Shown piece after piece: positions 12,251-32,188 of a DNA stretch of 64,000 nucleotides. The translations under genes were made by a program, and so were the position numbers. Below the pieces are notes generated by a model. The model was given only the letters and a program-made list of their open reading frames with translations, ran no database searches and had not been told where the DNA came from. The stretch is taken from the NCBI RefSeq assembly GCF_017811755.1, contig NZ_JADDJF010000017.1, forward strand, positions 1 through 64,000, read 5' to 3'. This stretch comes from Pararhodobacter sp. SW119 (GTDB taxonomy: Bacteria > Pseudomonadota > Alphaproteobacteria > Rhodobacterales > Rhodobacteraceae). How positions within the stretch are numbered: position 1 is the first letter of the stretch; each line of letters starts with the position of its first letter.

Positions 12251-12701
12251 TCGCCGCTCTACTTGTCGGAATCGCCGCCAGCTCGTGGACGCGGGTGGCC
12301 AGGATGCGTTTGACGGAATTGGCACCGGCGTAGAGCCCCAGCTTTTTCAGCTCCCCCGCGATCCGCTTGTAGCCCCAGAGAAGGTTTTCTGATCCGATGC
12401 GGATGACGACATCGCGCAACTCCTGCGTCAGGCGCGGTCGTCCGACAGCCTTGAAAGGGGTCCCGATACGCATCTGAGCGAGCCAGCGCTTGTAGGTCGC
12501 GGGCTTGGCCACTTCCAGAAGACCGTCGATCTCATGCCCGCACTCAGCCCCGATGCGCATGAGTTCGGCTTTTTCGGCGGGCGACAGGATAATCCTTTGC
12601 GTCGGGATGCGGGCCCGCAAGATCGCGATCTGGGCCTTCAGCAGCCTCAGTTGCGCGTTGTGGCGAGGCATGAAGAACTGGTTCAGGAAGACCAGAAGCA
12701 C
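12251..12701 (-). mobile_element. IS fragment: N-terminal part of an integrase-type transposase
   Basis: From the GTG at 12701 the minus strand encodes LLVFLNQFFMPRHNAQLRLLK, then an HTH-like 'ILSPAEKAELMRIG' and a linker 'GRPRLTQELRDVVIRI...NLLWGYKRIAGELKKLG'. This is the N-terminal region of integrase-catalytic-domain transposases of the IS3/IS481-like group. The reading runs into unrelated residues near 12295, before any DDE catalytic residue, so only about a third of the protein survives. It lies between the two halves of the broken endolysin. Confidence 0.7.
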
Positions 12702-17714: not shown

Positions 17715-18020
17715 ATGTCCTTCTACGACCGACACATCGCCCCCCGCCTGATCGACTGGTCCTGCGGTGGCGATCTCGTCACCCCAGAAACGGCAGCGCA
17801 TCGTTCCGCATGCCGAAGGCCGCGCGTTGAAAATCGGCGCGGGCTCGGGGCTGAACCTCGCCCGTTACGACGCCAGCCGTGTCACGCATCTGTGGACGCT
17901 CGAACCCGACGCCGCCATGCGGCGCCGAGAGAAGCCTGCGCCCCCGTCGCACCTGACTGGCTTGACGCCTCCGCGGCGGCCATTCCGCTGGAGACCGAAT
18001 CCGTGGATACGCTGGTCGAA
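17715..18020 (+). pseudogene. SAM-dependent methyltransferase remnant with frameshifts
   Basis: The plus strand reads MSFYDRHIAPRLIDWSCGG in one frame, then QRIVPHAEGRALKIGAGSG and LNLARYDASRVTHLWTLEP in the next, then PDWLDASAAAIPLETESVDTLV back in the first. Together these are the N-terminal ~100 residues of a class I methyltransferase (motif I GAGSG) in two or more frames. The remainder is replaced by an HsdR fragment. It cannot be functional. Confidence 0.7.
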
Positions 18021-19361
18021 ACTCTCGGGTTCACAAAGGTCGCAGAGTGCGGTGTCGAGGCGCTCGGCATCGGCGAGGATGGACCGAAGCGGCTGCAGTT
18101 CCTGCACCGACTGCAGGGCGAGATTGCTAAGCGCGGTGTTATCGACGTGTTGCGCAACGGCGCGAAGCACGGCCCCGGCTCGGTGGAGCTGTTCTTCGGC
18201 ACACCGACCCCGGGTAACGCCAAGGCCGAGGCGTTGTCCGCCGCAAATATCTTCAGCGTCACCCGCCAGCTGCACTATTCAAAGGACGCCACAAAGCTGT
18301 CGCTCGACGTGGCCGTCTTCATCAACGGCTTGCCTATCGCCACCTTCGAGCTGAAGAACAGCCTGACCAAGCAGACGGTCGAGGACGCGATCGAGCAGTA
18401 CAAGCGCGATCGTGATCCGAAAGAGCTGCTGTTCCAGTTCGGCCGCTGCGTCGTTCATTTCGCCGTGGACGACCACGAGGTGCGGATGTGCACCCACCTG
18501 AAGGGCAAGGCGTCCTGGTTCCTGCCGTTCAACAAGGGCTGGAACGACGGCGCGGGGAACCCGCCGAACCCCCACGGGCTGAAGACGGACTACCTGTGGA
18601 AGGAGTACCTAACGAAGCGGAACCTCACCGACATCCTTGAGAACTATGCGCAGGTGGTCGAGGAGGTCGACGAGCGCGGCAAGAGGAAGCCGCTGAAGCA
18701 GGTCTTTCCCCGCTTTCACCAGCTTGACGTGGTGCGCAAGCTGTTGGCCGATGCCGAAGCCGTAGGGGCCGGAAAGAGATACCTGATCCAGCACTCAGCC
18801 GGTTCGGGCAAGAGCAACTCGATTGCCTGGCTCGCTCATCAGCTGATCGGCTTGGATACTGCCGGAAAGACGACCTTCGACTCCGTTATCGTGGTCACCG
18901 ATCGGCGCGTTCTGGACAAACAGATCCGCGACACGATCAAGCAGTTCGCGCAGGTGTCATCTGTCGTGGGCCACGCCGAAAAGTCTGGCGACCTGCGCGC
19001 CTTCCTGAAGGCCGGTAAGAAGATCATCATCACGACGGTCCAGAAGTTCCCCTTCATCCTTGATGAGATTGGCGACGAGCACCGTGGGCGGACCTTCGCG
19101 ATCATCATCGACGAGGCCCATTCCAGCCAGGGTGCAGAGGAGTTGCCCGCAAAAGTCTCAGCCGACAGGGCATATCAGAATGCCATGAAGAACTCGGACA
19201 AACAGAACGCCCGAATCGAGCACGACAAGGCGCTTGAACGCGCAGTGATCGAGCTGCTCTCCGACCATACCGAGTTGTTCAAGCAGTTCTCCGACAATCC
19301 GTCGTTCAAGAAATGGCTGTCCGAAACGATCTTCACAGCGACATACGCCGACGCATCGTAA
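18021..19361 (+). pseudogene. hsdR: Type I restriction enzyme R subunit (HsdR), internal and end deletions
   Basis: This is fused in frame to the methyltransferase remnant. It retains the N-terminal nuclease region ('FSVTRQLHYSKDATKLSLDVAVFINGLPIATFELKN', with the D...ExK pattern), Walker A as HSAGSGKSNS, and the DEAH box as IIIDEAHSSQGAEE. Just after that box the sequence jumps to the C-terminal HsdR region ('RAVIELLSDHTELFKQFSDNPSFKKWL') and ends. The natural start, most helicase motifs and the true C-terminus are missing, from a normal ~1000 residues. No hsdM or hsdS is present. Confidence 0.8.
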
Positions 19362-19737
19362 TTGCGAGACCGGAAAAGTTCGACGTGGGGGGCGACAGGA
19401 AGCGAAGGGAACTGGGATCGGAGTCCGCGCCGGCACAAAATGAAACCGTTCATAGTCAGATGATTACAGGCTATTCACCAAAACGGCGCAGTCAACAGGT
19501 GCGGAGAATAACGGCCCGTAGAGACCGCTTCCGGCCCTCCTAGCGCTAGGCAAGGTGAATAGCCCGTCCCGCATAACCCTCGAAAACAACGGAAAAATCC
19601 GGCCGCAGCCGGATGGGAAGAACGATTTCGCGAGGGCAAGTGGCGGAGGGGATGGGCCTGATTTCCAACCTTCTCCACCTTGGAAAGCTCCTCGCAGAGC
19701 GACGCGAAGGAGACCTTTAATACGTAAAATCAACACT
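19362..19737. other. Intergenic stretch with a minus-strand terminator
   Basis: No gene is seen. It separates the HsdR relic from the toxin-antitoxin pair and contains the terminator at 19593-19614. It could hold the left boundary of the defence island, but no repeat was identified. Confidence 0.4.
19593..19614 (-). terminator. Rho-independent terminator behind parDE
   Basis: ATCCGGC and GCCGGAT form a perfect 7-bp stem around a 4-nt loop; on the minus strand the stem is followed by TTTTTCC. It lies 124 bases past the parE stop and would end that transcript. Confidence 0.75.
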
Positions 19738-20046
19738 TTATTCGAAGTCTTCCTTGAGGCGCTCGATCTGATGCATCCGCTCGTGCAAGATGGTGACGAT
19801 CCCGATGTCGCCATTGGCAAGGCGTTTCCAGTACACGAAATGTCGCTCGTAGCGGAAGAAGTAGCCTTCCACCCCGAACTCGGCCGGCACGGGCCTCGAC
19901 ATCACACCGCGTCTTTCAATCCGCTCGAACGCGGAGAAGAGGCCGGTGACGTAGGTTTCAGCCTGCGCCTCGCCCCACCGGTCGCGGGTGTAGCGGTAGA
20001 TCTCGTCGAGACGGACCGAGGCCGCCTCCTGGACCCGGATCGCCAT
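19738..20046 (-). CDS. parE: RelE/ParE family toxin
   Basis: A 102-residue toxin of the ParE branch: 'EAASVRLDEIYRYTRDRWGEAQAETYVTGLFSAFERI' forms the N-terminal helices and 'YFFRYERHFVYWKRL...IGIVTILHERMHQ' the C-terminal strands with conserved Arg/His. ParE toxins poison DNA gyrase and relatives cleave mRNA; which applies here is not shown. It starts four bases after the antitoxin stop and shares its transcript, ended by the terminator at 19593-19614. Confidence 0.9.
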   Translation of the reverse strand: MAIRVQEAASVRLDEIYRYTRDRWGEAQAETYVTGLFSAFERIERRGVMSRPVPAEFGVEGYFFRYERHFVYWKRLANGDIGIVTILHERMHQIERLKEDFE

Positions 20047-20050
20047 GGGC

Positions 20051-20311
20051 TCAGGCCCGGTTCCGGGAGATCACCTCGGCGGCGGTCAGGGGCTTGTAGC
20101 TTTCCTCGGGCGCGGCGAAGGCATGGTTCAGTTCGGCTTTCAGACGATCGAAAGCTTCGCGCTCGGCGCGTTCCTTGTCGCGGCGGATGAGATCGCGGAT
20201 GTATTCGCTTACGTTCTCGTAAGCGCCGCCTTCGCCGACATTGGTCGCAACGAACTCGCTCAGGGTACCGCTGACGCGGACGGTCATGGTCGTTGTGCGG
20301 GACATGGGCAC
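20051..20311 (-). CDS. parD: ParD/CopG-type antitoxin
   Basis: An 86-residue antitoxin with an N-terminal ribbon-helix-helix (TTTMTVRVSGTLSEFVA then YENVSEYIRDLIRRD) and a charged C-terminal tail that would wrap the toxin. The first gene of the pair is the antitoxin, as usual; the RHH domain should bind and autoregulate the promoter just right of 20311. GAGGAGGTGCGTGCCC precedes the start. Confidence 0.9.
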   Translation of the reverse strand: MPMSRTTTMTVRVSGTLSEFVATNVGEGGAYENVSEYIRDLIRRDKERAEREAFDRLKAELNHAFAAPEESYKPLTAAEVISRNRA

Positions 20312-20402
20312 GCACCTCCTCTCGGCTCCGTTGTCTTCAAGATAACCAAAAAGGAAGACAGATCAAGCCGTGCGCTACGCTATCGCTCCCGGTTTCTGGC
20401 CT

Positions 20403-20708
20403 TCAATCGCCTTCGTCCTCCACCACATGGCGGCCCGCAAGCGCGAGAAGCATGAACAGCACCGCATCGGAGTGCCGCGCCAGCGCGATGAGATGATCGC
20501 CGCTGGGTCCCCGTTCGCCCGCGAGCCAGTATTTCACGGTGCGCTCGCTGGCACCCGTCCACCGCATCGCCATCTTGATCGCACGACTGGTTGAACCGAG
20601 TTCCTCGTGCAACGCCATCGCCATGGCTTTCCGGTAGTCAATCGGCTTGTCGATCAGGTGCACAAATGTGCCCATCTTCGGCACAACTGTGCCCATCTTG
20701 ATCCGCAT
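20403..20708 (-). CDS. Small HTH-like DNA-binding protein
   Basis: A 101-residue protein whose core 'ELGSTSRAIKMAMRWTGASERTVKYWLAGERGPSGDHLIALARHS' reads as a helix-turn-helix of the phage regulator type. GAGAGGAAC lies before the ATG at 20708; internal ATGs at 20696 and 20675 are alternatives. Such proteins accompany integrases and recombinases on mobile elements and may be regulators. It is divergent from the serine recombinase, 315 bases away. Confidence 0.6.
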   Translation of the reverse strand: MRIKMGTVVPKMGTFVHLIDKPIDYRKAMAMALHEELGSTSRAIKMAMRWTGASERTVKYWLAGERGPSGDHLIALARHSDAVLFMLLALAGRHVVEDEGD

Positions 20709-21023
20709 CTTCTCGTTCCTCTCCGTTAAACATCTGGAGAGCCATGAAAACGGGAGAATCTCTTTTGCGCCCGAGACGACCCTTCGGGGTCGCCTGGCTA
20801 ATCACTTTGTTATTGGACGGTGACGGCAATGCTTCGAAAATCAGCGCATCACGCGCGCACCCGGGATCTGCGGTTACAGTTGTTGAATTGCAGGACTGGA
20901 AAAGACTTGCCCTTTTCAGGAAACGACTTTCCGGGCGCGCCACTGTCTTCTGCGCACACCGATTGTGCCGAGCACACCGAGCAACTGCATCAGCGTCTTG
21001 GGTGGTGAAGAGGAGAAGCGCGT
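20709..21023. promoter_or_regulatory. Divergent gap between HTH gene and serine recombinase
   Basis: No gene is seen. A perfect 6-bp hairpin closed by a stable TTCG tetraloop (CGACCC/GGGTCG) lies at 20777-20792. The gap should carry divergent promoters, and large serine recombinases often have their attachment site near the gene start. Confidence 0.4.
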
Positions 21024-22595
21024 GTGAGAGGCGGCCGGGCAAACAAAGAAGACGGTGGCGCGACGGCTGAACAGGACGTCCCGGCCGTCGCCTATGTCCG
21101 GATGTCGACCGATCACCAGAAATACTCGACCGAGAACCAGCTGGACGTCATCCGCAGCTATGCCGCCGCCCGCGGCCTGCAGATCCTGCGCGTATTCGAG
21201 GATTCAGGGCGTTCCGGGCTGCGGCTCGACGGCCGGGAGGCGCTACAGAACTTGATGGCCGAGGTCCAATCCGGCCTGGCCGATTTCAAGGCGATCCTCG
21301 TCTATGACGTCAGCCGCTGGGGGCGGTTTCAGGATGCCGACGAGGGCGCGTATCACGAACACGTCTGCTCCCGCGCCGGGATCCGGGTCCACTACTGCGG
21401 CGAACAGTTCGAGAATGACGGCAGCATCGGCTCGAACCTTCTGAAGACCGTCAAGCGGGTGATGGCCGGTGAATACAGCCGGGAGCTGTCGGTCAAGGTC
21501 TTCGCCGGGCAATGCCGACTCGTCGAGATGGGCTATCGCCAAGGCGGCGCGGCCGGCTACGGGCTGCGGCGGGCGCTGATCGACGAGCAAGGCCATCCGA
21601 AGGGAGAACTGTCTCGCGGCGAGCAGAAGAGCCTGCAGACCGACCGCGTGATCCTGGTGCCCGGCCCCGAGGAGGAGCAGCGTGTCGTTCAGCGCATGTA
21701 CGAGATGTTCGTCAACGAGGGGCGCCCGGAGCGCGAGATCGCGGATGTTTTGAACGCCGAAGGACACCGCACCGATCTCGACCGACCTTGGACCCGCGCG
21801 ACCGTCCATCAGGTGCTGACCAACGAAAAATACATCGGGAACAATGTCTTCGCGAAGGTGTCCTTCAAGCTGAAGCAGCGCCGCGTAGTGAACCCGCGCG
21901 AGATGTGGATCCGAGCTGAGGGCGCCTATCCCGCCATCGTCGAGCAGGCGCTGTTCCTGCGCGCCCGTGAGATCGTGGATGCCCGCAGCCGCCATTTCTC
22001 CAACGAAGAACTGCTCGACGCCCTGCGCGCGATCCTCGAGCGGCAGGGCATGCTGTCGGGGCTGATCATCGACGAGGAGGACAATCTTCCGTCCTCCAGC
22101 GCCTATCGTAGCCGCTTCGGCAGCCTGCTGCGCGCCTACCGGTTGATCGGCTATGAGCCGGACCGGGACTACAGCTACATCGAGATCAATCGCGCTCTGC
22201 GGCAAGCCCACCCGCAGGTGGTGGCCGAGATCATCTCCGGAGTCACGCGCCACGGCGGGTGGGCCGCGCAGGACGCGGCGACAGAACTGGTTCGTGTCAA
22301 CGACGAGTTCACCCTGTCCATCGTTCTCGCCCGCTGCACGGCGACAGCGGCCGGGTCGCTGCGCTGGCGCATCCGTCTCGACACCGGCCTCGTACCCGAC
22401 ATCACCATCGCCGTGCGCATGGACGAGGTGAACGAGGCGCCGCGCGACTACTACGTGCTGCCCAGCATCGACATGACCATTCGAAAACTGAAGTTCGCCG
22501 AGCAGAACGGCCTCGCGCTCGATGCGTACCGCTTCGACACGCTGGATTACTTCTACGCGCTCGCCTCGCGGGCCAGGATCGCGGAGGTGGCATGA
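21024..22595 (+). CDS. Large serine recombinase
   Basis: A 523-residue site-specific recombinase. The catalytic domain opens with 'AYVRMSTDHQKYSTENQ', where Ser is the nucleophile, and continues 'VFEDSGRSGLRLDGREALQNLM' and 'VYDVSRWGRF' with the catalytic Arg pair. A Recombinase (DNA-binding) domain follows, with 'GYRQGGAAGYGLRR' and 'DRPWTRATVHQVLTNEKYIGNNVF'. The C-terminal ~170 residues are a less common extension. The GTG start at 21024 has GAGGAG upstream. The stop overlaps the next gene by ATGA, coupling it to two ParB/RepB-like genes. It probably mobilises the island. Confidence 0.9.
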   Translation: MRGGRANKEDGGATAEQDVPAVAYVRMSTDHQKYSTENQLDVIRSYAAARGLQILRVFEDSGRSGLRLDGREALQNLMAEVQSGLADFKAILVYDVSRWGRFQDADEGAYHEHVCSRAGIRVHYCGEQFENDGSIGSNLLKTVKRVMAGEYSRELSVKVFAGQCRLVEMGYRQGGAAGYGLRRALIDEQGHPKGELSRGEQKSLQTDRVILVPGPEEEQRVVQRMYEMFVNEGRPEREIADVLNAEGHRTDLDRPWTRATVHQVLTNEKYIGNNVFAKVSFKLKQRRVVNPREMWIRAEGAYPAIVEQALFLRAREIVDARSRHFSNEELLDALRAILERQGMLSGLIIDEEDNLPSSSAYRSRFGSLLRAYRLIGYEPDRDYSYIEINRALRQAHPQVVAEIISGVTRHGGWAAQDAATELVRVNDEFTLSIVLARCTATAAGSLRWRIRLDTGLVPDITIAVRMDEVNEAPRDYYVLPSIDMTIRKLKFAEQNGLALDAYRFDTLDYFYALASRARIAEVA

Positions 22596-23503
22596 TGCCC
22601 GACGACATGGAACCGACCAGCCAGAAGCAGGTGACCCTGATCCCGACCGACAGGGTTCGGGTCCTCAATCCCCGCGTCCGCAACCGGCGGACCTTCGAGG
22701 CGATGGTGGAGAACATCGCCCGCATCGGCCTGAAGCGCCCGATCACCGTTGCCCCGCGTGCCGGGACCGACCCGCAGGAATACGACCTGGTCTGTGGTCA
22801 GGGCCGTCTCGAGGCATTCATCGAGCTCAAGCAGGACCGCATCCCCGCCATCGTGATCGAGGCCGACGAGAGCGACTGCCTCGTCATGAGCCTCGTCGAG
22901 AACTGCGCGCGGCGGCAGCACAACCCCATCGACCTGATGCGCGAGATCGGCATGCTCCGCCAGCGCGGCTATAACGACCGCCAGATCGGTGAGAAGATCG
23001 GCCTGTCCACCGAATACGTGACCATGATCGCAGGGCTGCTGGAAAAGGGCGAGGAACGTCTGGTCGCGGCCGTAGAGACCGGAGTTCTGCCCCTGAACCT
23101 CGCCATCCAGATCTCCAAGACAGATGCGAAGGGCGCGCAGAAGGCGCTGATGGACGCCTACACGCAGAACAAGCTGCGCGGTCGAAAGCTGGCGCTCGTG
23201 CGCCGCCTGATCCAGCAGCGCGAACTCCGCGGCCCGCAGATCCAGACCAACCCGCTCGGACGCCGGATTGCGAAACGCGCGCTGACCAGTGAAGGCCTCG
23301 TGCGGGCCTATCAGCAGGAAGCCACGCGCCAGAAACTGCTGATCAAGAAGGCTGAACTGACCCAAGGACGACTGATGTTCGTGCGCGAGGCATTCCGCAA
23401 GCTCTGCGCGGACGAGCACTTCCTGACGTTGCTCAGGGCCGAGGGGCTTGAGACGATGCCCGCCGATCTCGCACGGTCGGTAACCGAAGGTGCCCCGGCA
23501 TGA
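22592..23503 (+). CDS. ParB/RepB-like partition protein 1
   Basis: A 303-residue protein with a ParB N-terminal domain: 'IPTDRVRVLNPRVRNRRTFEAMVENIARIGLKRPITV', the box 'YDLVCGQGRLEAF' (in the GxRR position), and 'SLVENCARRQHNPIDLMREI' leading to an HTH 'YNDRQIGEKIGLSTEYVTMI'. The C-terminal half is helical and basic. It starts with ATGATG overlapping the recombinase stop and ends overlapping the next gene by ATGA. No ParA ATPase is nearby, so a role in the recombination reaction or excised-circle maintenance is more likely than chromosome segregation. Confidence 0.82.
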   Translation: MMPDDMEPTSQKQVTLIPTDRVRVLNPRVRNRRTFEAMVENIARIGLKRPITVAPRAGTDPQEYDLVCGQGRLEAFIELKQDRIPAIVIEADESDCLVMSLVENCARRQHNPIDLMREIGMLRQRGYNDRQIGEKIGLSTEYVTMIAGLLEKGEERLVAAVETGVLPLNLAIQISKTDAKGAQKALMDAYTQNKLRGRKLALVRRLIQQRELRGPQIQTNPLGRRIAKRALTSEGLVRAYQQEATRQKLLIKKAELTQGRLMFVREAFRKLCADEHFLTLLRAEGLETMPADLARSVTEGAPA

Positions 23504-24417
23504 AACGCGAGGCCAAGGAGACCCCGCAAAGCGTCAATCACGGGTTCGAGGACGACTGCGTAACCCTCCCCATCGACGCGATCCTGCCGTTGCGCGCCCT
23601 TGGCAAGAGCGCGAAATCCAGCCGGAAATATCGGCAGATCGTGGCCTCCATCGCCCAGATCGGGATTGTCGAGCCGCCCGTCGTGGTACGGAACCCCGAC
23701 AAGTCTGCCACCTGGTTGCTGCTCGACGGCCACCTGCGGATCGAGGCGCTGAAGGACGCAGGCGCGAGCGAGGTGGAATGCTTGGTCTCCACGGACGATG
23801 AGGCCTTCACCTACAACCGCCAGGTCAGCCGTCTCGCGCCGATCCAGGAGCACAAGATGATCCGCAAGGCGATCGAGCGCGGCGTGCCGGAGGAAAAGAT
23901 CGCGCTCGCGCTCGATCTCAACATGAGCAGCATCCGGCGCAAGGCCCGCCTGCTCGATGGCATCTGCGAGGAAGCAGTCGCGATTCTGAAGGACAAGCCC
24001 TGCACCAATGCTGTGTTCGACACACTGCGCAAGATGAAGACCATGCGCCAGATCGAGGCGGCCGAGTTGCTGGTCAACGCGAACAACTATTCCGTCGCCT
24101 ACGTAAACGCGATCCTCGCCGGAACGCCTCAGGCGCAGTTGGTCGAGGCCTCAAAGCCGAAGAATATCAAGGGCATAACGCCCGAGGCGATGGCGCGGAT
24201 GGAGCAGGAACTGGCTCGCCTGCAGGAAGGGATCGCTTCCATCCAGGACACCTATGGCCAGGACCATCTGCACCTGACCGTGATCAAGGGCTACGTCGGC
24301 AAGCTGCTCGGGAATGCTCGGGTCGTGCGCTACCTGGCGCAGAACCATCCCGAGTTCCTCGGCGAGTTCCAGACAATCACCGAGATCACGCCGACCGAGG
24401 CCGCCAACGCCGAGTAG
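23500..24417 (+). CDS. ParB/RepB-like partition protein 2 (RepB C-terminal type)
   Basis: A 305-residue protein. The N-terminal domain has 'PIDAILPLRALGKSAKSSRKYRQIVASIAQIGIVEPPVV' and the box 'LLDGHLRIEALKDAG'; then 'LAPIQEHKMIRKAIERGVPEEKIALALDLN' forms the HTH. The C-terminal part resembles the plasmid RepB C-terminal domain ('MRQIEAAELLVNANNYSVAYVNAILAGTP'). It is the third gene of the recombinase operon, by ATGA overlap. Together with the previous gene it gives a paralogous ParB pair. Confidence 0.85.
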   Translation: MKREAKETPQSVNHGFEDDCVTLPIDAILPLRALGKSAKSSRKYRQIVASIAQIGIVEPPVVVRNPDKSATWLLLDGHLRIEALKDAGASEVECLVSTDDEAFTYNRQVSRLAPIQEHKMIRKAIERGVPEEKIALALDLNMSSIRRKARLLDGICEEAVAILKDKPCTNAVFDTLRKMKTMRQIEAAELLVNANNYSVAYVNAILAGTPQAQLVEASKPKNIKGITPEAMARMEQELARLQEGIASIQDTYGQDHLHLTVIKGYVGKLLGNARVVRYLAQNHPEFLGEFQTITEITPTEAANAE

Positions 24418-24880
24418 CCGTTCTCGGCGAATGAAGGGGACCCGGACCCGATAAGCGCGGGGACCGCGGGAGACGCCGGACTGTGGGCCGGATCGAGCGC
24501 GGCGGTGGGGATGGCGGCGAACCCGCTCGGAGCCCACCAGGCTGGCTCGAGTTTTCGCCAGCTGCGCGGCCGCGCCTGCGGCTGCGTCTCATTCGGGGCG
24601 TGTCGGAGGTCGGGCTACTCCGGCACGCCCTTCCGAAGCGAGAGCGTCATCCACCCACTGCAGCAAGAAGGTGTCAACCGTCATCGCCGCATCGCCCTAA
24701 CAACGACGATGCCGCGAACTCATCATCGCCAGTCGAGAAACGTGTAGACGCCTCGTGATGGCTCGCGCTCGCGGTAAGACCCCTCAGTTCCACCATCGAG
24801 ATGGTGCCAAGCTTTGATCTTGAATCCTGAACTAAGCCTAGTAGCATGAACCCAATGTTTTCTGGAACTTAGAAGTTGTA
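24418..24880. other. Gap between recombinase operon and defence operon
   Basis: No gene is seen in 463 bases. It holds the long hairpin at 24596-24630 and then an A/T-richer stretch (about 24790-24880) that should carry the promoter of the three-gene operon. No clear -35/-10 pair was assigned. Confidence 0.45.
24596..24630. terminator. Long GC hairpin, possible terminator or recombination site
   Basis: GGGCGTGTCGGAG pairs with CTCCGGCACGCCC around a 9-nt loop: 13 bp with one G-T pair. There is no T-run on either strand, so a rho-independent terminator is only possible. Its place between the recombinase operon and the defence operon also fits a recombinase recognition site. Confidence 0.4.
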
Positions 24881-26122
24881 ATGGGGCTCAGAGCGATGCG
24901 CCAGTTAAGATCAACCGGCGCGCGCAATGCGCTGCAAGTGGAGCCGGCGCTAGGCTGGACTTTTCTGTCCCGCGAGGCACTGTCCCGCGCTAAGGCTCAG
25001 ATGGACGAAGAGTCCATGGGCGTGCGCGACGAGATTGGCTTTCTAACGATTCATCAGCGTTACGCCGACCGCTTCTTTCCGGGCACATCAGTGCTGCATA
25101 CCCGAGCCCGCTATATTCTTTTTGTGCCTTGGCTGTTCGAGGATTTGGCAGGTTTGACAGGACCTGCTGCCATGCGTGCCATGCGCGAACGGGAAAGGGA
25201 GCTCGCTGGGCGGCTCAAGGATGCTGGAGAATCCCAAGTGATCGGGGGGCGCGTCTTCCCCCAACCTTCGAGCCAGCCGCCGTCAACGGTGTACTGGAAT
25301 GCGCTCGCGGTCTGGGGAATACTGCGTAGGCGCCTTGATGGGCGGACCATTTCCCGGGCGCATGCGCATCGGCTGCTTAAAAGCGCTGGAACAGCGATGG
25401 ATGACGACGGCCAACCGCTCGTCAGTTTCGATCCACCATTCGTGCCACTCCCTAAACGACCGGAGAACTGGAGAAGTGGGCATATCTCCCTTCAGCTTAC
25501 GACTGAAGAAGCAACTTTCCTGCGCGAGCGGCTTGGCCAGTTGCGGAGCAATGGTGGACACGAGGCCTCACTGCTCGCGCGATTGGTGCGGACTGAGACT
25601 GTGGCACCGGACGGAATGTGGGCCACTGAAACCCGGGAGATCGCCGGCCCCGACAAATCCGCACTTGCGCGCGCTCATCAGGCTGCACACCTCGCGGGTG
25701 TCGGCCGTGCTGTCTACGATGCACTACTGGAACGGATTGTCGAGACCGATGACAAGCGGGAGACTTCGACTCGACATCGCGACCACCTTGCTGCCGTCGT
25801 CGAAGATCATGGTTCGCTTGCTGAAAAACTTGATGTAGGTGCTCTCGAGGCGGACATTGGCGCGCTGCCAACGAAATTGCGGGCTGTACTGACAACTACT
25901 AAGGATTGGGTGGCCTCGAAATCACAGAACCCCGCCCCACTCTTCGACGTCTATGCTGCGGCTGAGGCCCGAAAGGGCCCACGCGCACGCCTCGCGGTTA
26001 CACCCCATGGTCGTGCCCGACGGCTCGAATGGTCAAGCGATGAACATGGTCTCGCGGGGCCGCTCCACTACAGGTGGGAGCAGGTCAGCATGCTTCTCAA
26101 TGATCTTGCGGGCGCCCAATGA
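24881..26122 (+). CDS. DUF6361-like protein, first gene of candidate defence operon
   Basis: A 413-residue soluble protein. The stretch 'GVRDEIGFLTIHQRYADRFFPG' followed by 'TSVLHTRARYILFVPWLFEDL' (about residues 46-88) is what I recognise as the DUF6361 hallmark; this is from memory and should be checked. Other parts are 'RVFPQPSSQPPSTVYWNALAVWGI' and an Arg-rich middle. No nuclease or ATPase motif is visible. There is no strong ribosome site at 24881; ATG at 24896 is an alternative. Its stop overlaps the next start (ATGA). Codon use is visibly more A/T-tolerant than the flanking genes. It may be a specificity or scaffold subunit, but that is inference. Confidence 0.75.
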   Translation: MGLRAMRQLRSTGARNALQVEPALGWTFLSREALSRAKAQMDEESMGVRDEIGFLTIHQRYADRFFPGTSVLHTRARYILFVPWLFEDLAGLTGPAAMRAMRERERELAGRLKDAGESQVIGGRVFPQPSSQPPSTVYWNALAVWGILRRRLDGRTISRAHAHRLLKSAGTAMDDDGQPLVSFDPPFVPLPKRPENWRSGHISLQLTTEEATFLRERLGQLRSNGGHEASLLARLVRTETVAPDGMWATETREIAGPDKSALARAHQAAHLAGVGRAVYDALLERIVETDDKRETSTRHRDHLAAVVEDHGSLAEKLDVGALEADIGALPTKLRAVLTTTKDWVASKSQNPAPLFDVYAAAEARKGPRARLAVTPHGRARRLEWSSDEHGLAGPLHYRWEQVSMLLNDLAGAQ

Positions 26123-27972
26123 GCGGCGCAGTCGAAAACTGGGCGGCGCTCTCGTTTCTTGAGGGTTTACGTCCCGGTCCCGATGAAAGTGTCGAGTTGG
26201 CACTGCTGGCGTCCTATTCGGCAGACCTGGGATCAATCGGCGCTACTTTGCTTGCCCTGGCAGGCAAAGACACAGATGCGGGCCGAGGTAGTCCCTCAGA
26301 TTTCGCTGATGCGGTCGAGCGACTGCGAGGGAAGGCACGGATTGTCATTCAGCGTGGCCGCCTAGCAAAGATGCGTCGGACACCGCGCATAGCAGCAGTG
26401 TTGGACCAATTCGTGCGCGAGGTCGATTTCGATGAAGCCACCCATAGCTGGCACCCCAAGGTAGCTCTCGTTCGAACACGCAACACGACTGGAGAGACTG
26501 GCTGGCGGCTTTGGATCGGAAGCCGAAATCTCACCGAAAACGTGAACCGCGACATCGGGTTACTGCTTGTCTCAGGCACCAAGGGCGGCGCACTGATCGC
26601 TGGTGCGGATGAGATGGCGCGTGCGCTGGCTGAAAGGGCCGAACTGAAGGGGCTGCGCCCGGCCTCGCTCGCGGCGACGATCGCAAAGGTAGCTTGGCGT
26701 TCTCCGGCGGGCGTACGGGTTGAGCGCATTCGCTGGTCTGCCGGAACTGGAGATCAGCCCGTTCCAGTCCCGCCGCCGGATGTCGATGAAGTCATTGTGG
26801 TAAGTCCTTTTATAGACAAGCAATTTCTTGCTCGTCAGCTCGTGAAGGGTACAAAACAGTCTAGGCGTGTTTTGCTGACTACGGTACGTGAGATTGAGCG
26901 GATTGGCCCGTCACTGGCAGCATTCGACGACTTGCTGGCGCTGGATGCACCTGATTATCCCGTGGGTGATCCGGAGCTTGGGTCCCGGTCCGCCGAGTGG
27001 CCATCCGATGTCACTTCGACCGAGGATGAGGAAGAAGAGGTCGGACGCGGCCTCCATGCCAAATTGCTGTTCATGCGAACTGGGCGCAAACGCACCCTGT
27101 GGCTGGGAAGCGCGAACGCGACCCTCCGGGCCTGGACTGGACGCAACGCTGAAGCCACGGCCGAACTGGTTGTCACCGAGCCGGTCGAAAGAGGGCTAAA
27201 GGCGCTGCTGGGGTCAGCCCGTCTGGTCGACGCGCCCAGCGGCGAGCATTTGCCCGACGCAGCGGTCTTGGAGGAGGAAGCGCTCGAACGGGCGCGCGCG
27301 CAGGTGGCGGCGCGATGGTCCGCTTCGCTCAGTATTGATGGCGAGGGGATACGTCTCAGCCATCGTTCCGATCTACATCCCGACGGGCCACATCCTGACG
27401 AAGCCGACATCCTGCTGGAAGTCGGCGCTCTTCACGGTGACCTTCTGATCTGGCCGCCACGACAAGCCGAGGTGTATCTTGGGCATGTCGTTCCATCTGA
27501 CCGAAGCGAGCTCGTGCGCTTGCGTGTCAGCCGCAAGGACAAAGGTCTCTCATGGCTGCAACGAGCACCGGCGGAGCCGCCGTTTGGGGAGGATCGAGAC
27601 CGTGCCGCGTTCGTACGCTTTCTTGGTGCGCGAGGGTTTCTTCTTTGGGTGGCCGGATTGCTCGCAAATGACGATACACAGAGCGACGGCGACTGGACGA
27701 TTGACGAACCGCGGGAACGGACGAGTGAAGAGGAGAAATCAACATTCGACTCCTCGTTGCCAACTTTGGAAGCGATGTTGGCGGCATGGGCCCGCGATCC
27801 GGTAAAGTTCCGCGAGATTGAACGGCGGGTCTCTCAGTATCTGCCTGCGGTGCTCAAACAGGCCGAACAGGAAGATATACTAACCGCTGAAATGCTGAGG
27901 AGCTTCAAGGAGTTGTGGAGCAAGCTCCGAACTGGGCTGGGCTCCACCGAAGTAAAGGGTAGAAGCCGATGA
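26119..27972 (+). CDS. Protein with two PLD-type HxK motifs, probable nuclease
   Basis: A 617-residue protein with a duplicated phospholipase-D-like signature: HPKVAL near residues 112-117 followed by WIGSRNLTEN near 131-140, and HAKLLF near 312-317 followed by LGSANATLRAW near 329-339. Each half thus supplies His, Lys and a GSxN turn, as in PLD-family nucleases and the DISARM protein DrmC. The Asp after Lys in classical HKD is not evident. The C-terminal ~280 residues are of unknown fold. It overlaps both neighbours by ATGA, so all three proteins are made together. A DNA-cutting role is inferred from the family. Confidence 0.82.
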   Translation: MSGAVENWAALSFLEGLRPGPDESVELALLASYSADLGSIGATLLALAGKDTDAGRGSPSDFADAVERLRGKARIVIQRGRLAKMRRTPRIAAVLDQFVREVDFDEATHSWHPKVALVRTRNTTGETGWRLWIGSRNLTENVNRDIGLLLVSGTKGGALIAGADEMARALAERAELKGLRPASLAATIAKVAWRSPAGVRVERIRWSAGTGDQPVPVPPPDVDEVIVVSPFIDKQFLARQLVKGTKQSRRVLLTTVREIERIGPSLAAFDDLLALDAPDYPVGDPELGSRSAEWPSDVTSTEDEEEEVGRGLHAKLLFMRTGRKRTLWLGSANATLRAWTGRNAEATAELVVTEPVERGLKALLGSARLVDAPSGEHLPDAAVLEEEALERARAQVAARWSASLSIDGEGIRLSHRSDLHPDGPHPDEADILLEVGALHGDLLIWPPRQAEVYLGHVVPSDRSELVRLRVSRKDKGLSWLQRAPAEPPFGEDRDRAAFVRFLGARGFLLWVAGLLANDDTQSDGDWTIDEPRERTSEEEKSTFDSSLPTLEAMLAAWARDPVKFREIERRVSQYLPAVLKQAEQEDILTAEMLRSFKELWSKLRTGLGSTEVKGRSR

Positions 27973-30900
27973 GCGCGCCCAAGCCGTTCCAGGAAGCTGC
28001 AGTCAATGCGGCGCTCGCGGCCTTCGGAGTTCATAATGGGCGTCGGCGATTTCTGGTGGCGGATGAAGTCGGTCTCGGAAAAACAGTGGTAGCGAAGGAA
28101 TTGGCTCGCCGCATGTCGGAGGATGGTAGGGCGCCCCTGGTCATTTACTATATAGCCAACGGTCATGCGGTTTCGCACCAAAACAAGAGCCGAGTTGTTG
28201 ACTTCCTTAAGGATTATTCACGTAAAGCCGCTATCGCGACACCAGATCGGCTCTCGCTGATTGCAGTCGCGAGACGGCCGGACAGTCCCGTCCTTGTCTA
28301 CGCACTGACTCCCGCAACGTCCTTTCCCGGGGGGCGGGTACGTCTGACTGGAGGACGCAAGGAAGAACGAGCATTCCTGAAGGTTTTGCTCGAGCAGAGC
28401 TATCCTGCTTTTGCACGCAATCTCGATCCGGACATATTGCAGTTGAGCGCGCGTGGGTCATGGGAGTGGGCCATCAAGGATGCGGAGCACAAGTTCGCGG
28501 CGTCGCCGCCCCATTTGCGGAAGAGGTTTCGCGAGGCCCTTGCGGCTGAGTTCGGCGAGCCCGTCCGCACGATGCTCGATCTGGCTGTGTATGGCGACCC
28601 GGCCCGAAAAATTAAGCCGCTCAAGCCTACCACCTTCGTTGGCCGCCTCAGGCGCGCCCTTGCACTGGCAACGCTTCGCCATCAGCCGCCCGATTTAGTC
28701 ATTCTCGATGAATTTCAGCGCTACCGGCAAATTCTTGACGAAAAGGACGCAGACCCGCTTCTTAAGGCTCTTCTGGAACCTGAACATTTGGTTGTCCCGC
28801 CGGCAGTCTTGCTGCTTAGCGCTACGCCATATCGGCTATTAAGCACACGATGGGAAGAGGCGCGCGGTGCGCTTGCTCACTCGCAACTTCTAGAACTGAT
28901 CGAATTTCTTGCCGGCGCCGATGTTCGAGAACGTGCGAAGGTGCTTTTTGCCGATTTCGGTGACAAATTACGTGATATTGCGGCGCATGCAGATGCGAGT
29001 AGTCCCGAGTTGGCGGCTGAAGTCGCCCAAGCGGCCAGACTAAGAGATGAACTCCGCGGCCTTCTGACGCCAGTCATGTCGCGCACTGAGCGGGACAGTG
29101 TGGCGTCGGCCGATCCACTCGCCGCGACGCAATTTCTCGATGCGGACCCGTTGCCAGAGGATTTTCGGGTCTATCGACATCTCGTCGAGAGCTTTGCAGA
29201 GCAGATGCGCTACGAGGCGCTGCCATATTGGTCGTCCGTTCCGATGCCCGCCCAATCGCTTGGTCCACGCTATGCAGCGTGGAAGCGTGCCAAATTCAGG
29301 GCAGCACCGAAGCTCACTAAGATGACCCGGGAGCGCCGCAACAAACTCAACGCGCCTACGACATGGCCTGACGCGAAGCTTCGCGCTCTGAACAGCGTGG
29401 CTTCTCCCAAGGAGCTTTCGCTCCCGTGGGTCGCCCCGTCACTACCTTGGTGGCCACTATCCGGCGGCTGGAAGGGTTCGGGAGCCGATCCCAAGCTCCT
29501 GATGTTCAGCCGCTTTCGCGCAACGCCCCCTAGCGTGGCGGCGCTTCTGAGCTTTGGCGTCGAGGCGCACTGTCTTCCCAAGAATCACGGCGGGTACGAG
29601 AAGGCTTATAAGCGCCGTCGTTTCAAGTTGGGGGCCGAGCCGGGGCCAGTGATGGCCGCATTCCATCCGTCGCCATGGCTAATCCGGAACACGAACCCGC
29701 TTGCGAAAGCCGGAGCGACGCTCGGCGCTGTACGCAAAGAGGTTCGGCGACAAATTCTCGCCGCACTCCCCAAGGGCATCATTGAACGCGACACCGTGAA
29801 GGCCCGCAGGCGGCACAGATCGATTGCCCGGATTCTGTCGTCGATAGAACGGACAGCAGGTGTTGTCGAACAATCCGCCTCAGGCTGGGGCAGCGCAATC
29901 GGTGATGATCGTGCCGCGAAGTCTGCGGTTCGAAAATGGCGCCAGGCGCAGCCGATTGAGCGGCTTTCACCTGTCGAGCTTTCTGATCTTGTGGACTATG
30001 CGATCGGGGCGCCTGGCGTCGCGCTAGGACGGGCATTGCTACGGCATGATCCGTCAATCCTTGATCCGACACGCTATCCCGAGTTGGTCCAGCTCTGTTG
30101 GCAGGGATTGCGCGCCTACCTCGATAACCCGGTGATCCTGTCATCGCTGCCGGGGAAGAGCGCAGTCGAGCAAGTCATGGGCGCCGTGGTCGATGGCGGC
30201 TTCGAAAGCGTCCTGGACGAGCATTTCTGGTTGCGATCGCAAAATCTCCAAGAGGGCGCAGCTGGTCTCGCCAAGGACCTTCAATCGTCGCTCGGACTAC
30301 GCGCAGGCACCTTTAGCTTTCATGCAATAGGAGGTGCGCCACATAAGATCCCGGTGCGCTGCCACGTCGCCGTGCCGTTCGGCGACGCCGAGACCCAACC
30401 CGCCGTCAAGGTGGACGGCGGCGTGGGGCAAGCCGCTCCTGTCCGACCCGATGAGGTTCGGCGCAGCTTCAACACACCCTTCTGGCCACATGTGCTGGCA
30501 ACAACATCGGTTGGTCAGGAGGGTCTCGATTTTCATCCCTGGTGCGCGCACGTGGTTCATTGGGATCTTTCGTCAAACCCTCTCGATATCGAACAGCGAG
30601 AGGGTCGCATCCAACGCTATGCTGGTTTAGCCGTCAGACGCAGACTCGCGGTAGATTTGCGTGGTGACGTGCTGAAAGATCGTACTGCGGCACACCATTC
30701 CCCTTGGCATTGCGTAGAATTTCACGCTGAGCGTCTGGTCGATGCGAGCGGCCTTCGCCCCTGGTGGGTGTACGATGGTGCCGAAATTCGTCGTCACGTC
30801 TTCGAGCGCCCGTTTGGACGGGAGATCGTCCGCTTCGCCCAACTTCGAGAACAGCGCATGATCTATAGGTTGGCTCTCGGACAACCCAATCAGGAGGACT

Positions 30901-31043
30901 TCATCGACGTGCTTTCACGAGGTGGGGCGACTACCCGCGCTTTGCTGCAACCGTTAATTCTTGACCTGTCTGCGATGGGGCTTCGGCAACGGCCTATGCC
31001 ATGTGGCAATGAGCTAGAATGCTCTTGGTCATGCAAGAAATGA
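27969..31043 (+). CDS. SNF2-like superfamily 2 helicase, 1024 residues
   Basis: A large SF2 helicase or translocase. Visible motifs: a Gln in PKPFQEAAV (about 7-13), Walker A as DEVGLGKTVVA (32-42), motif II as VILDEFQRY (near 245-253), motif III as LLLSATPYRLL (near 281), motif V as TTSVGQEGLDFH (near 847), and motif VI as DIEQREGRIQRY (near 870-881). The wide spacing between lobes is typical of SNF2/Mtr4-like defence helicases such as DrmD. It ends eight bases before the spanin stop codon on the other strand. In the operon it probably supplies ATP-driven DNA translocation for the PLD-like protein. Confidence 0.87.
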   Translation: MSAPKPFQEAAVNAALAAFGVHNGRRRFLVADEVGLGKTVVAKELARRMSEDGRAPLVIYYIANGHAVSHQNKSRVVDFLKDYSRKAAIATPDRLSLIAVARRPDSPVLVYALTPATSFPGGRVRLTGGRKEERAFLKVLLEQSYPAFARNLDPDILQLSARGSWEWAIKDAEHKFAASPPHLRKRFREALAAEFGEPVRTMLDLAVYGDPARKIKPLKPTTFVGRLRRALALATLRHQPPDLVILDEFQRYRQILDEKDADPLLKALLEPEHLVVPPAVLLLSATPYRLLSTRWEEARGALAHSQLLELIEFLAGADVRERAKVLFADFGDKLRDIAAHADASSPELAAEVAQAARLRDELRGLLTPVMSRTERDSVASADPLAATQFLDADPLPEDFRVYRHLVESFAEQMRYEALPYWSSVPMPAQSLGPRYAAWKRAKFRAAPKLTKMTRERRNKLNAPTTWPDAKLRALNSVASPKELSLPWVAPSLPWWPLSGGWKGSGADPKLLMFSRFRATPPSVAALLSFGVEAHCLPKNHGGYEKAYKRRRFKLGAEPGPVMAAFHPSPWLIRNTNPLAKAGATLGAVRKEVRRQILAALPKGIIERDTVKARRRHRSIARILSSIERTAGVVEQSASGWGSAIGDDRAAKSAVRKWRQAQPIERLSPVELSDLVDYAIGAPGVALGRALLRHDPSILDPTRYPELVQLCWQGLRAYLDNPVILSSLPGKSAVEQVMGAVVDGGFESVLDEHFWLRSQNLQEGAAGLAKDLQSSLGLRAGTFSFHAIGGAPHKIPVRCHVAVPFGDAETQPAVKVDGGVGQAAPVRPDEVRRSFNTPFWPHVLATTSVGQEGLDFHPWCAHVVHWDLSSNPLDIEQREGRIQRYAGLAVRRRLAVDLRGDVLKDRTAAHHSPWHCVEFHAERLVDASGLRPWWVYDGAEIRRHVFERPFGREIVRFAQLREQRMIYRLALGQPNQEDFIDVLSRGGATTRALLQPLILDLSAMGLRQRPMPCGNELECSWSCKK

Positions 31044-31051
31044 GCTTGCGA

Positions 31052-31306
31052 TCAGAGTGTGCATGCTTTGGCTTGGTTCCTGATGACGCCGTAGTCGGCG
31101 AGCATCTCGACGATGGCGGACATCTCTGGAAGTAACGCGAGTTCCTCAGCCGCGCGCACTTGGACCTCGTTGGGATACTCTACCACGGGCGGGCAGACGG
31201 TCGCGATGCCGGGCTCAGAACCGACCGTTGCGCAGCCGCTCAGCAAGCTCAACGCGATCGCGAGGACGGCGAGCCGCCGCTTCCAGCATCTGGCGGTGGA
31301 TGGCAT
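31052..31306 (-). CDS. Rz1-like outer-membrane spanin lipoprotein
   Basis: An 84-residue lipoprotein starting MPSTARCWKRRLAVL. The lipobox LLSGC places the lipidated Cys at residue 25. The mature part is short and carries a Pro pair (CPPVVEYPNE). About 90 bases of its 5' end overlap the i-spanin gene in another frame, the classic Rz/Rz1 arrangement. With Rz it would fuse inner and outer membranes in the last step of lysis. Confidence 0.75.
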   Translation of the reverse strand: MPSTARCWKRRLAVLAIALSLLSGCATVGSEPGIATVCPPVVEYPNEVQVRAAEELALLPEMSAIVEMLADYGVIRNQAKACTL

Positions 31307-31472
31307 CGGTTTGCTCCAACATGTCGAGCCGCTCGGCGGCGCGGCCAACGCGCTCGGCCGTGCGGCGGAGGTTAACGATGAACAGGGTGATGGTGAGCGC
31401 GACGAGGGCGAGAGCCGCCACCCGCCACGCCCATCGCCGGGCGATCAACTCGGCCACCAGCGTGCCCCACAT
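31215..31472 (-). CDS. Rz-like inner-membrane spanin
   Basis: An 85-residue protein with one membrane helix (about residues 17-34, WRVAALALVALTITLFIVN) and a charged, coiled-coil-like C-terminus rich in Arg and Glu (RRTAERVGRAAERLDMLEQ). Its ATG overlaps the endolysin stop as TGATG. The Rz1-like lipoprotein gene starts inside it. Identification rests on topology and position, because spanins diverge rapidly. Confidence 0.75.
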   Translation of the reverse strand: MWGTLVAELIARRWAWRVAALALVALTITLFIVNLRRTAERVGRAAERLDMLEQTDAIHRQMLEAAARRPRDRVELAERLRNGRF

Positions 31473-32152
31473 CAGCGCAGCCCTCGCTTCCAATCGTCCA
31501 CCCGCGCCCAGACGGCCAGCGCGATCCCCCCGAGCGCCAGCGCAATGAACACCCAGCGGAGCGTGTCCAGATACGGCACCAACGGCAGGACGGCGCCCTG
31601 CGCTTCCGCCAGAACCTCCTGCGCGACCTCGACACCAGCGGCGCCGACGGTGGCTACACCGGCCGCGCCAGCACCCCGTAGCGTCCGGCTCTCAGCCAGC
31701 GCCTCACGCGCGGGCGGTGTCTCCGCTGCGAAGGCAGTCGCCCGGACCGGGAACCGCTCGCCCCACTGACGCGCGGGGCCGAGGTCGATATGCATGAACC
31801 CCGATCGCGGATAGAACCCGAAGCCGAGGAACCCGACCTCGCGCGCCGCAGCCTCGAAGGCCACCGGGTCGTGGTTTGTCATGGCGATGTCGAAGGCGGC
31901 GCCGTCGAGGTGCTTGGAGCGGGTCGCGCCGCCCACGGCACGGTTGTGCTCGGGGCTGCGATAGGCGGAGCGGACGATCAGGGGCTTCTCGAGCCGGTCG
32001 CGCAGGCCCTGCAAGCGGTCCATGGCGATGGGGTCGAGCTTGAGCGCGCCGGTGCCGCGGCAGGCGATTTCGGGCGGCGAGAAGTTCTTCCAGCGCCAGA
32101 GATGCGCGGGGAGGTCGCGGAAGTGGCGGAAGGTGCGGACGGGTTCGGGCAT
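31472..32152 (-). CDS. Phage endolysin, peptidase M15 type, with C-terminal membrane helix
   Basis: A 226-residue protein. The catalytic domain is M15/DUF882 (D-Ala-D-Ala carboxypeptidase fold): 'RSAYRSPEHNRAVGG', then zinc ligands His81 and Asp88 in SKHLDGAAFD, and His121 in GFMHIDLG. After a Gly/Ala linker comes a hydrophobic helix at about 199-215 (WVFIALALGGIALAVWA) and a basic tail, so the enzyme is membrane-anchored or the helix aids export. The ATG at 32152 is chosen for its AGAGGAACTCACC; an upstream TTG would add six residues. No separate canonical holin gene is obvious. Confidence 0.88.
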   Translation of the reverse strand: MPEPVRTFRHFRDLPAHLWRWKNFSPPEIACRGTGALKLDPIAMDRLQGLRDRLEKPLIVRSAYRSPEHNRAVGGATRSKHLDGAAFDIAMTNHDPVAFEAAAREVGFLGFGFYPRSGFMHIDLGPARQWGERFPVRATAFAAETPPAREALAESRTLRGAGAAGVATVGAAGVEVAQEVLAEAQGAVLPLVPYLDTLRWVFIALALGGIALAVWARVDDWKRGLR

Positions 32153-32188
32153 GGTGAGTTCCTCTGGCAAGGTGAATGACGAGAACCG

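What the first reader, a model, noticed from the sequence alone, without database searches (positions are those of the whole stretch)
24881..31043. Candidate three-gene anti-phage system: DUF6361-like + dual-HxK PLD protein + SNF2-like helicase
Seen: three genes of 413, 617 and 1024 codons joined by two ATGA overlaps, with two HxK/GSxN sites in the second and a full SF2 motif set in the third. Known: PLD nuclease plus SNF2 helicase pairs occur in DISARM (DrmC, DrmD). Inferred: the operon is a restriction-like defence system. DISARM also needs DrmA, DrmB and usually a methyltransferase, none of which is here, so this is a reduced or separate type with the first protein as a novel subunit.
Basis: partly seen in the sequence, partly recalled or inferred. 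Interest (0 to 1): 0.9.

Follow-up and report, generated by a model that had tools for sequence, protein, structure and literature searches.

The report
Azaca anti-phage operon in prophage cargo
The three genes are a copy of Azaca, an anti-phage system that already has a name, sitting between a recombinase cassette and a prophage's lysis genes; the operon itself is ordinary, but how Azaca works is still unknown and two side observations deserve follow-up.

Summary
The three genes lie at the stated coordinates with two ATGA overlaps. Against PADLOC-DB they match ZacA (2.2e-91), ZacB (2.6e-117) and ZacC (2.2e-264) over nearly whole profiles. DISARM fails on DrmB, DrmC and the DrmD cut-off.

ZacA-ZacB-ZacC occur in one order and strand in 74 of 80 fetched loci. 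Both HxK pairs of ZacB are invariant in 52 sequences. Best mechanism (inferred): a SNF2/RapA-type motor works with a PLD nuclease, all-helical ZacA being the adaptor.

Leads, not proofs: the operon fills a slot beside a serine recombinase-RepB-RepB cassette whose ~110-130 bp non-coding element follows repB2 in 15 of 15 loci fetched; and a two-gene relative (DUF6361-like + dual-HxK PLD) occurs in 8 of 390 genomes of the order, with no ZacC-like gene seen (one locus ends too soon to tell).

The parts
24881..26122 (+). zacA, DUF6361 protein, 413 aa; predicted mostly helical
   Evidence: PADLOC ZacA 2.2e-91, residues 22-411 on profile 3-392/396; PF19888 1.6e-17; AlphaFold2 mean pLDDT 88.7; no PDB match with E<=0.001
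26119..27972 (+). zacB, PLD-superfamily protein with two HxK sites, 617 aa
   Evidence: PADLOC ZacB 2.6e-117, profile 6-582/586; AlphaFold2 mean pLDDT 85.9; Foldseek hits to PPK1, Tdp1, SauUSI
26452..26460 (+). first HxK site (H112-P-K114); partner S135/N137 at 26521-26529
   Evidence: H112, K114, S135, N137 invariant in 52 sequences
27055..27063 (+). second HxK site (H313-A-K315); partner GSAN at 27106-27117
   Evidence: H313, A314, K315, G330 invariant; S331, N333 at 90% or more in 52 sequences
27969..31043 (+). zacC, SNF2-type SF2 helicase, 1024 aa
   Evidence: PADLOC ZacC 2.2e-264, profile 10-1017/1019; ResIII and Helicase_C; profile hits to RapA, best 2.7e-07
28059..28085 (+). ZacC motif I (residues 31-39)
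   Evidence: A31-E33 and G35-T39 invariant, V34 at 90% or more, in 40 sequences
28707..28718 (+). ZacC motif II, DEFQ (residues 247-250)
   Evidence: D247, E248, F249 invariant in 40 sequences; Q250 invariant in 12
21024..22595 (+). large serine recombinase of the cassette next to the operon
   Evidence: Resolvase 1e-20 and Recombinase 7.8e-23; phrog_95 integrase 4.3e-56
22592..23503 (+). RepB/ParB-like protein 1 of the cassette
   Evidence: PF07506 8.9e-30
23500..24417 (+). RepB/ParB-like protein 2 of the cassette
   Evidence: PF07506 4.4e-58; 50 of 394 genomes of the family at E<=1e-40
24433..24562 (+). conserved non-coding element directly behind repB2, left edge of the cargo slot
   Evidence: found behind repB2 in 15 of 15 fetched loci, 74-99% DNA identity over 103-131 bp; Rfam: one match of E 0.99, outside the element and below its gathering score
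31052..32170 (-). phage lysis side of the slot: small lipoprotein-like gene (31052-31348) and M15 peptidase (31472-32170)
   Evidence: phrog_17373 7.6e-113 and endolysin phrog_894 1.7e-24 for the peptidase; the small gene has no Pfam hit at E<=0.1 and is named by eye

Best explanation
This is an Azaca (ZacABC) anti-phage operon carried as cargo beside a prophage. Shown: identity of the three proteins, conserved order, conserved HxK residues of ZacB, conserved helicase motifs of ZacC, position between a recombinase cassette and phage lysis genes. Inferred: the three proteins form one machine in which ZacC, a RapA/DrmD-like translocase, moves on or senses invading DNA at the cost of ATP; ZacB, whose two HxK sites would form one PLD active site as in Tdp1 and whose core resembles the restriction enzymes SauUSI, NgoAVII and BfiI, cuts nucleic acid; and ZacA, a helical protein with an invariant FPGTS patch, links or licenses the two. 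No methyltransferase lies in the unit, so telling self from phage would have to rest on a DNA structure, a DNA modification or a phage product rather than on marking of host DNA.
For: Matches of all three to PADLOC Zac models over nearly whole profiles. ZacC named as the Azaca helicase in PMC10925250 (passages); Azaca listed with a PLD-like domain, source Millman et al. 2022, in PMC10952713 (passages). Linkage: 74 of 80 loci with A-B-C on one strand in order; the window and the 6 other genomes of the order with a full-length ZacA all have B and C beside it. HxK residues invariant in 52, most motif residues of ZacC invariant in 40. ZacB fold hits include Tdp1 1.9e-6, SauUSI 1.6e-4, NgoAVII 1.7e-3, BfiI 2.2e-3. 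Defence-type neighbours: AbiEi/AbiEii, helicases and N-6 methylase, VapC, PD-(D/E)XK and UvrD genes, and SoFic, HKD-Snf2, ZorA/ZorB and a type IIG restriction-modification gene near four relatives; Azaca also appears in a defence hotspot of Pseudomonas islands (PMC12629846, passages). Recent transfer: ZacABC 99% identical in another genus of the family and 98-99% in L030 and L031; GC 59.3-60.5% against 64.3-67.8% around it.
Against: No phage or protein test was done here, and no mechanism was found in the passages read. Fold does not prove a nuclease: the two best hits of ZacB are polyphosphate kinases and lipid phospholipases also match, and TM-scores are low (at most 0.44 in the 50 rows listed). 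ZacA has no significant structural match, so its role is a guess. ZacB reaches solved structures only weakly by sequence (7clg 0.012, 2c1l 0.28). NCBIfam has no match for ZacA or ZacB. Neighbours in the Cronobacter and Janthinobacterium plasmids are not clearly defence genes, and enrichment was not measured against a control. No relative was confirmed in viral contigs (0 of 17 candidate stretches); in 50,697 phage records ZacC has 2 matches, the better at 24.5% over 67%.
Confidence: 0.7

Rival explanations
1. A reduced or divergent DISARM system, with ZacB as DrmC and ZacC as DrmD.
For: ZacC resembles DrmD models (PADLOC 1.8e-11; NCBIfam 8.6e-14) and one DrmA model (4e-08 over 44 residues). 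The PLD proteins of the two-gene relatives hit DrmC weakly (0.003 and 0.0018).
Against: The best stretch on DrmD is about 60 residues of the second helicase domain, and the score is 50.8 bits against a cut-off of 610. ZacB of the window hits no DrmC model at E<=1. MZB (PF09369, taken as the mark of DrmB from recall) gives 0 matches in the window's genome, while 8 of 14 control genomes ring. ZacC's own model scores 878.7 bits.
Confidence: 0.03
2. A type IV-like restriction system that attacks modified phage DNA, as SauUSI does (recalled) with a PLD nuclease and a helicase.
For: ZacB resembles SauUSI by fold (7clg 1.6e-4) and weakly by sequence (7clg 0.012); no methyltransferase among the genes of the slot.
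Against: Pfam shows no modified-base reader in the three proteins at E<=1, although the fold of ZacA is unmatched. Specificity could not be tested here.
Confidence: 0.25
3. An abortive-infection device: the nuclease is released on sensing and destroys host nucleic acid too, in the way of Hachiman (helicase sensor, nuclease effector; abstract of PMC12278908 seen in the listings).
For: Same kind of parts, helicase plus nuclease-like protein, without a methyltransferase in the unit.
Against: Nothing in the sequence separates it from a phage-only nuclease.
Confidence: 0.3
4. A DNA-repair or phage-life-cycle module (Tdp1-like removal of protein from DNA ends) that serves the prophage rather than defence.
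For: Tdp1 is among the best fold hits; the operon adjoins phage genes.
Against: Relatives are found in bacterial contigs (435 confirmed) and plasmids (54 records with a ZacC match), hardly in phage records and not in viral contigs.
Confidence: 0.08

Closest known systems
Azaca (ZacA, ZacB, ZacC)
   Same: All three proteins match its PADLOC models over nearly the whole profile and lie in the order A-B-C.
   Different: Nothing in the three proteins. This copy lies beside a serine recombinase-RepB-RepB cassette and prophage lysis genes.
DISARM (DrmA, DrmB, DrmC, DrmD, usually a methyltransferase)
   Same: A PLD protein and a SNF2-type helicase.
   Different: DrmB mark absent from the genome, no DrmC hit, DrmD far below cut-off; no methyltransferase among the genes of the slot.
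SauUSI, NgoAVII R protein, BfiI (restriction enzymes with a PLD core)
   Same: Partial fold match to ZacB; SauUSI is an ATP-dependent restriction endonuclease by its PDB title.
   Different: Azaca splits nuclease-like protein and motor into two chains and adds ZacA; ZacB carries both HxK sites in one chain.
Hachiman (HamAB)
   Same: Helicase plus nuclease (abstract).
   Different: HamB is placed among Ski2-like, ZacC among SNF2-like helicases (passage).
PADLOC candidate PDC-M27
   Same: Its models hit ZacB (M27B, 0.028) and ZacC (M27C, 1.3e-17).
   Different: The stretches are about 36 and 58 residues, far weaker than the Zac matches.

Membership tests
Azaca | ZacA, ZacB and ZacC all present over nearly the whole profile | tested here: met
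   2.2e-91, 2.6e-117, 2.2e-264 over 3-392/396, 6-582/586, 10-1017/1019
Azaca | genes adjacent, one strand, order A-B-C | tested here: met
   ATGA overlaps; same order and strand in 74 of 80 relatives
Azaca | intact HxK sites and helicase motifs | tested here: met
   present in the window copy; conserved in relatives
Azaca | protects against phage | not testable with these tools
   needs plaque assays
DISARM | DrmB (DUF1998/MZB; the link of the domain to DrmB is recalled) | tested here: not met
   0 matches to PF09369 in the window's genome; 8 of 14 controls ring
DISARM | DrmC-type PLD protein | tested here: not met
   no DrmC hit for ZacB at E<=1
DISARM | DrmD helicase over NCBIfam cut-off | tested here: not met
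   50.8 bits against 610
DISARM | DrmA helicase and methyltransferase | tested here: inconclusive
   no such gene in the slot 24563-31051, but the rest of the genome was not searched for either; ZacC itself hits one DrmA model over 44 residues (4e-08)
Type IV restriction (SauUSI-like) | cuts modified DNA only | not testable with these tools
   needs biochemistry
Prophage cargo | phage structural and lysis genes on one side, an integrase-type gene on the other | tested here: met
   M15 peptidase and tail protein, tape measure, minor tail, major head, head protease, portal, terminase; serine recombinase. Whether the recombinase belongs to the same prophage was not settled

The most novel reading that the evidence does not exclude
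Azaca is one branch of a wider DUF6361-PLD family: the three-gene form uses an ATP-driven helicase, while a two-gene form (DUF6361-like + dual-HxK PLD, joined as one operon) works without it, so that the DUF6361 protein rather than the helicase would be the common partner that controls the nuclease. In Paracoccus-type genomes such operons can be carried by a serine recombinase-RepB-RepB unit whose ~110-130 bp element marks the edge of a swappable cargo slot.
Probability: 0.35. Interest if true: 0.6.

Novelty: new member of a known kind. Interest (0 to 1): 0.25.

Why it matters
As an operon it is one more Azaca. It matters modestly because two papers list the mechanism of Azaca as unknown (PMC10482375 and PMC12926258, passages), and the alignments made here name the residues to mutate and show that ZacA has no significant structural match in the PDB. 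The two-gene relative would be a simpler system in which to learn what a DUF6361 protein does to a PLD protein, and the recombinase-RepB-RepB cassette is a place to look for more defence cargo.

Tried and rejected
Rejected: DISARM membership. Rejected: a second ZacC in the same genome; one match at E<=0.001. Led nowhere: DUF6361 in the literature (0 papers); ZacA/ZacB/ZacC by name (useful only through the Hachiman papers); a first guess at Gao_RL (no paper with that name among those listed); PDB sequence search with ZacA (0 at E<=1); Foldseek with ZacA (228 matches at E<=10, none at E<=0.001); Rfam on the conserved element; ZacA relatives in viral contigs (0 confirmed of 17); consensus promoters (0 found, shuffles 1.6) and terminators (2 found, shuffles 6.3); literature on a serine recombinase-ParB cassette (7 papers, none on this by title and abstract, none opened; only the spelling 'defence island' was searched).

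Limits of counts. The six of 80 without all three genes are L044, L064, L085, L093, L098, L099: L044, L098 and L099 reach a contig end, L085 and L093 hold ZacA fragments, L064 shows only short matches to ZacA and ZacB. In one search, 37 of 80 loci were left out of the overlap count because an ORF was missing, incomplete or outside my length limits. Alignments A4, A5 and A6 hold the window plus 50 of 60, 51 of 68 and 39 of 59 ORFs listed. The 15 cassette loci were picked by me among the 50 matching genomes, mostly the better matches, with G888, G817 and G228 passed over. The cargo scan used 37 hand-picked ORFs from 11 of these 15 loci; L158, L159, L162 and L170 were left out, so its tally is not a rate.

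Results against the two side readings. With my own models at E<=1e-3, only 2 of the 8 two-gene loci show the ZacA-like protein and 7 of 8 the ZacB-like one, and DUF6361 in Pfam is below its cut-off in the two tested. The contig of L116 ends about 120 bases behind the PLD gene, so a helicase there cannot be excluded. In Polaromonas a SNF2-related gene lies upstream of such a pair. In 385 genomes of the class the PLD profile of the pair has 4 matches at E<=1e-10, one of them full length. Lysis genes were seen in only 4 of 15 cassette loci.
Full report
Observation. The three ORFs, their lengths, ATG starts and both ATGA overlaps are as described. The two HxK sites and the helicase motifs are real and conserved. 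One correction of detail: motif II of ZacC reads DEFQ in the window, not DEAD/DEAH; its Q250 is invariant in 12 sequences but not a 90% column in 40. Motif numbers are my own assignment.

Identity. Against PADLOC-DB 2.0.0 the proteins match ZacA (2.2e-91), ZacB (2.6e-117) and ZacC (2.2e-264), each across nearly the whole profile. The Hachiman preprint PMC10925250 lists 'Azaca (ZacC)' and places ZacC among SF2_SNF2 defence helicases (two passages). PMC10952713 lists Azaca among systems with a PLD-like domain, source Millman et al. 2022 (passages). PMC10121019 uses Azaca as a known system (passage), and PMC12629846 reports it in a defence hotspot of Pseudomonas islands (passages). PMC10482375 and PMC12926258 list its mechanism as unknown (passages). 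A paper tried under the DOI that I recalled for Millman et al. is not held; that it describes and tests Azaca is recalled.

Linkage. In 390 genomes of the same order, 15 match the ZacA model: 7, the window's genome included, over nearly the whole model and 8 over a part. The window and the 6 others of the first kind have ZacB and ZacC alongside. Of the 80 best of 435 confirmed ZacA relatives in genome contigs, 76 carry ZacB and 74 carry ZacB and ZacC in the same order and strand. In 43 intact trios the A-B junction is a 4-base overlap in 33 and the B-C junction in 36. Plasmids of Mesorhizobium, Janthinobacterium, Methylocystis, Cronobacter and the archaeon Halomarina carry a trio annotated as DUF6361, phospholipase D and helicase proteins.

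Anatomy. ZacB: H112, K114, S135, N137 and H313, A314, K315, G330 are invariant in 52 sequences. Its AlphaFold2 model (mean pLDDT 85.9) has 27 PDB chains at E<=0.001, among them PPK1, Tdp1, phosphatidylserine synthase, PLD and SauUSI; NgoAVII and BfiI follow at about 2e-3. TM-scores are low, so the shared part is at most the PLD core. ZacC: profile hits to RapA (2.7e-07) and its motifs fit a SNF2-type translocase. ZacA: mostly helical model (mean pLDDT 88.7) without a significant match in the PDB; D50, E51, G53, H58 and F66-P67-G68-T69-S70-V71 are invariant in 51 sequences, F66-S70 also in the 12 that include a distant clade.

Mechanism. The parts point to an ATP-driven motor (ZacC) that works with a PLD nuclease (ZacB), with ZacA as adaptor or licence. 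Two HxK sites in one chain fit a single PLD active site built from two halves (recalled for Tdp1-type enzymes). The steps from sensing to cutting are inferred. With no methyltransferase in the unit, DNA structure, DNA modification or a phage product is left as the trigger; the sequence cannot choose among them.

Not DISARM. The DrmD resemblance has a best stretch of about 60 residues and 50.8 bits against a cut-off of 610. DrmC models do not hit ZacB at E<=1. The MZB domain, taken from recall as the mark of DrmB, is not found in the genome, while 8 of 14 control genomes ring. DrmA and methyltransferases were not searched for across the genome.

Surroundings. To the right lies a tailed-phage prophage on the minus strand: M15 peptidase and tail protein, tape measure, minor tail, major head, head protease, portal and terminase. 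To the left lie a serine recombinase and two RepB/ParB-like genes. The stretch 21075-31300 is 95% identical to a Paracoccus sulfuroxidans contig (L032), 19745-31609 is 92% identical to Palleronia pontilimi (L030) and 19473-31338 is 97% identical to a MAG labelled Halothiobacillus (L031; the label may be a binning error). In a genome of the same genus (L024) the recombinase-RepB-RepB unit and the element behind it lie about 190 bases from the lysis genes, and that genome's own, distant Azaca (26-30% identity) lies on the other side of the recombinase. So the trio of the window fills a slot that is nearly empty there. Its GC, 59.3-60.5%, is below the 64.3-67.8% around it.

The cassette. RepB2 relatives occur in 50 of 394 genomes of the family at E<=1e-40. 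I fetched 15 of these loci. RepB2 and the ~110-130 bp element directly behind it are found in 15 of 15, the recombinase in 13 of 15 (L161 and L169 are cut by contig ends). The element is 74-99% identical in DNA, in some loci more alike than the RepB2 protein (L165: 98.4% DNA against 74% protein). Lysis genes like the window's are seen in 4 of the 15, with 7.3 to 12.3 kb of other cargo between. Of 37 hand-picked cargo proteins, PADLOC models such as WYL (6 members), GajB (up to 5) and a type II restriction enzyme (4) are matched; 25 of 202 matched families were shown, and there is no control.

The two-gene relative. The 8 partial ZacA hits are 8 of 8 followed by a relative of one PLD protein; the ORFs are 492-559 and 768-821 aa. 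PADLOC finds ZacA at 1.2e-07 and 1e-08 and ZacB at 1.5e-12 and 2.5e-13 in the two pairs tested. Profile comparison gives E 2.7e-05 (probability 74) for the first proteins over 111 columns and 5.1e-13 (98) for the second. H81, K83, H267 and K269 are invariant in the 8 PLD proteins. No ZacC-like ORF was found in the fetched stretches of the 8 loci, while the same model finds ZacC in 11 of 11 trio loci; in L116 the contig ends just behind the pair, so that locus is open. My own models see the ZacA-like protein in 2 of 8 and the ZacB-like one in 7 of 8 at E<=1e-3. In the class, 4 of 385 genomes match the PLD profile at E<=1e-10, one over its full length. In plasmids 25 records match, 2 over at least 80% of the query. 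The two plasmid stretches opened show the PLD relative behind a gene of similar size with a 4-base overlap, both annotated as hypothetical; the first gene was not tested for DUF6361. In one of them, Polaromonas, a SNF2-related gene lies upstream.

Verdict. Ordinary as a finding: a new member of a known system. The side observations carry most of the interest.

Noticed in passing
L028:10115-13989, L029:10681-14558, and L114-L119: Two-gene relative of Azaca: DUF6361-like protein plus dual-HxK PLD protein; no ZacC-like ORF seen in the 8 loci, of which L116 ends too soon to tell.
   Followed up: partly
window 21024-24562 and L156-L170: Serine recombinase-RepB-RepB cassette with a strongly conserved ~110-130 bp non-coding element behind repB2 in 15 of 15 fetched loci; different cargo follows.
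   Followed up: partly
L025:4361-19742 and L027: In L025 a distant Azaca lies between a GajB/UvrD-like gene and ZorA/ZorB-type genes; a large gene before the UvrD one has no PADLOC match and is called PD-(D/E)XK-like only by analogy with the annotated Methylocystis pair. L027 looks the same by size and sequence, by eye.
   Followed up: partly
window 17715-19361: 548-aa ORF matching part of type I restriction HsdR (REase_I 3.1e-22, profile 115-417 of 1029; HSDR_N 2.5e-20); looks truncated.
   Followed up: no
window 12547-13176: A second M15 peptidase of the same phage family as the one at 31472-32170 (phrog_17373, 2.9e-86), perhaps another prophage remnant.
   Followed up: no
L024:5567-8294: SoFic-type and HKD-Snf2-type genes near the Azaca of a genome of the same genus.
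   Followed up: no
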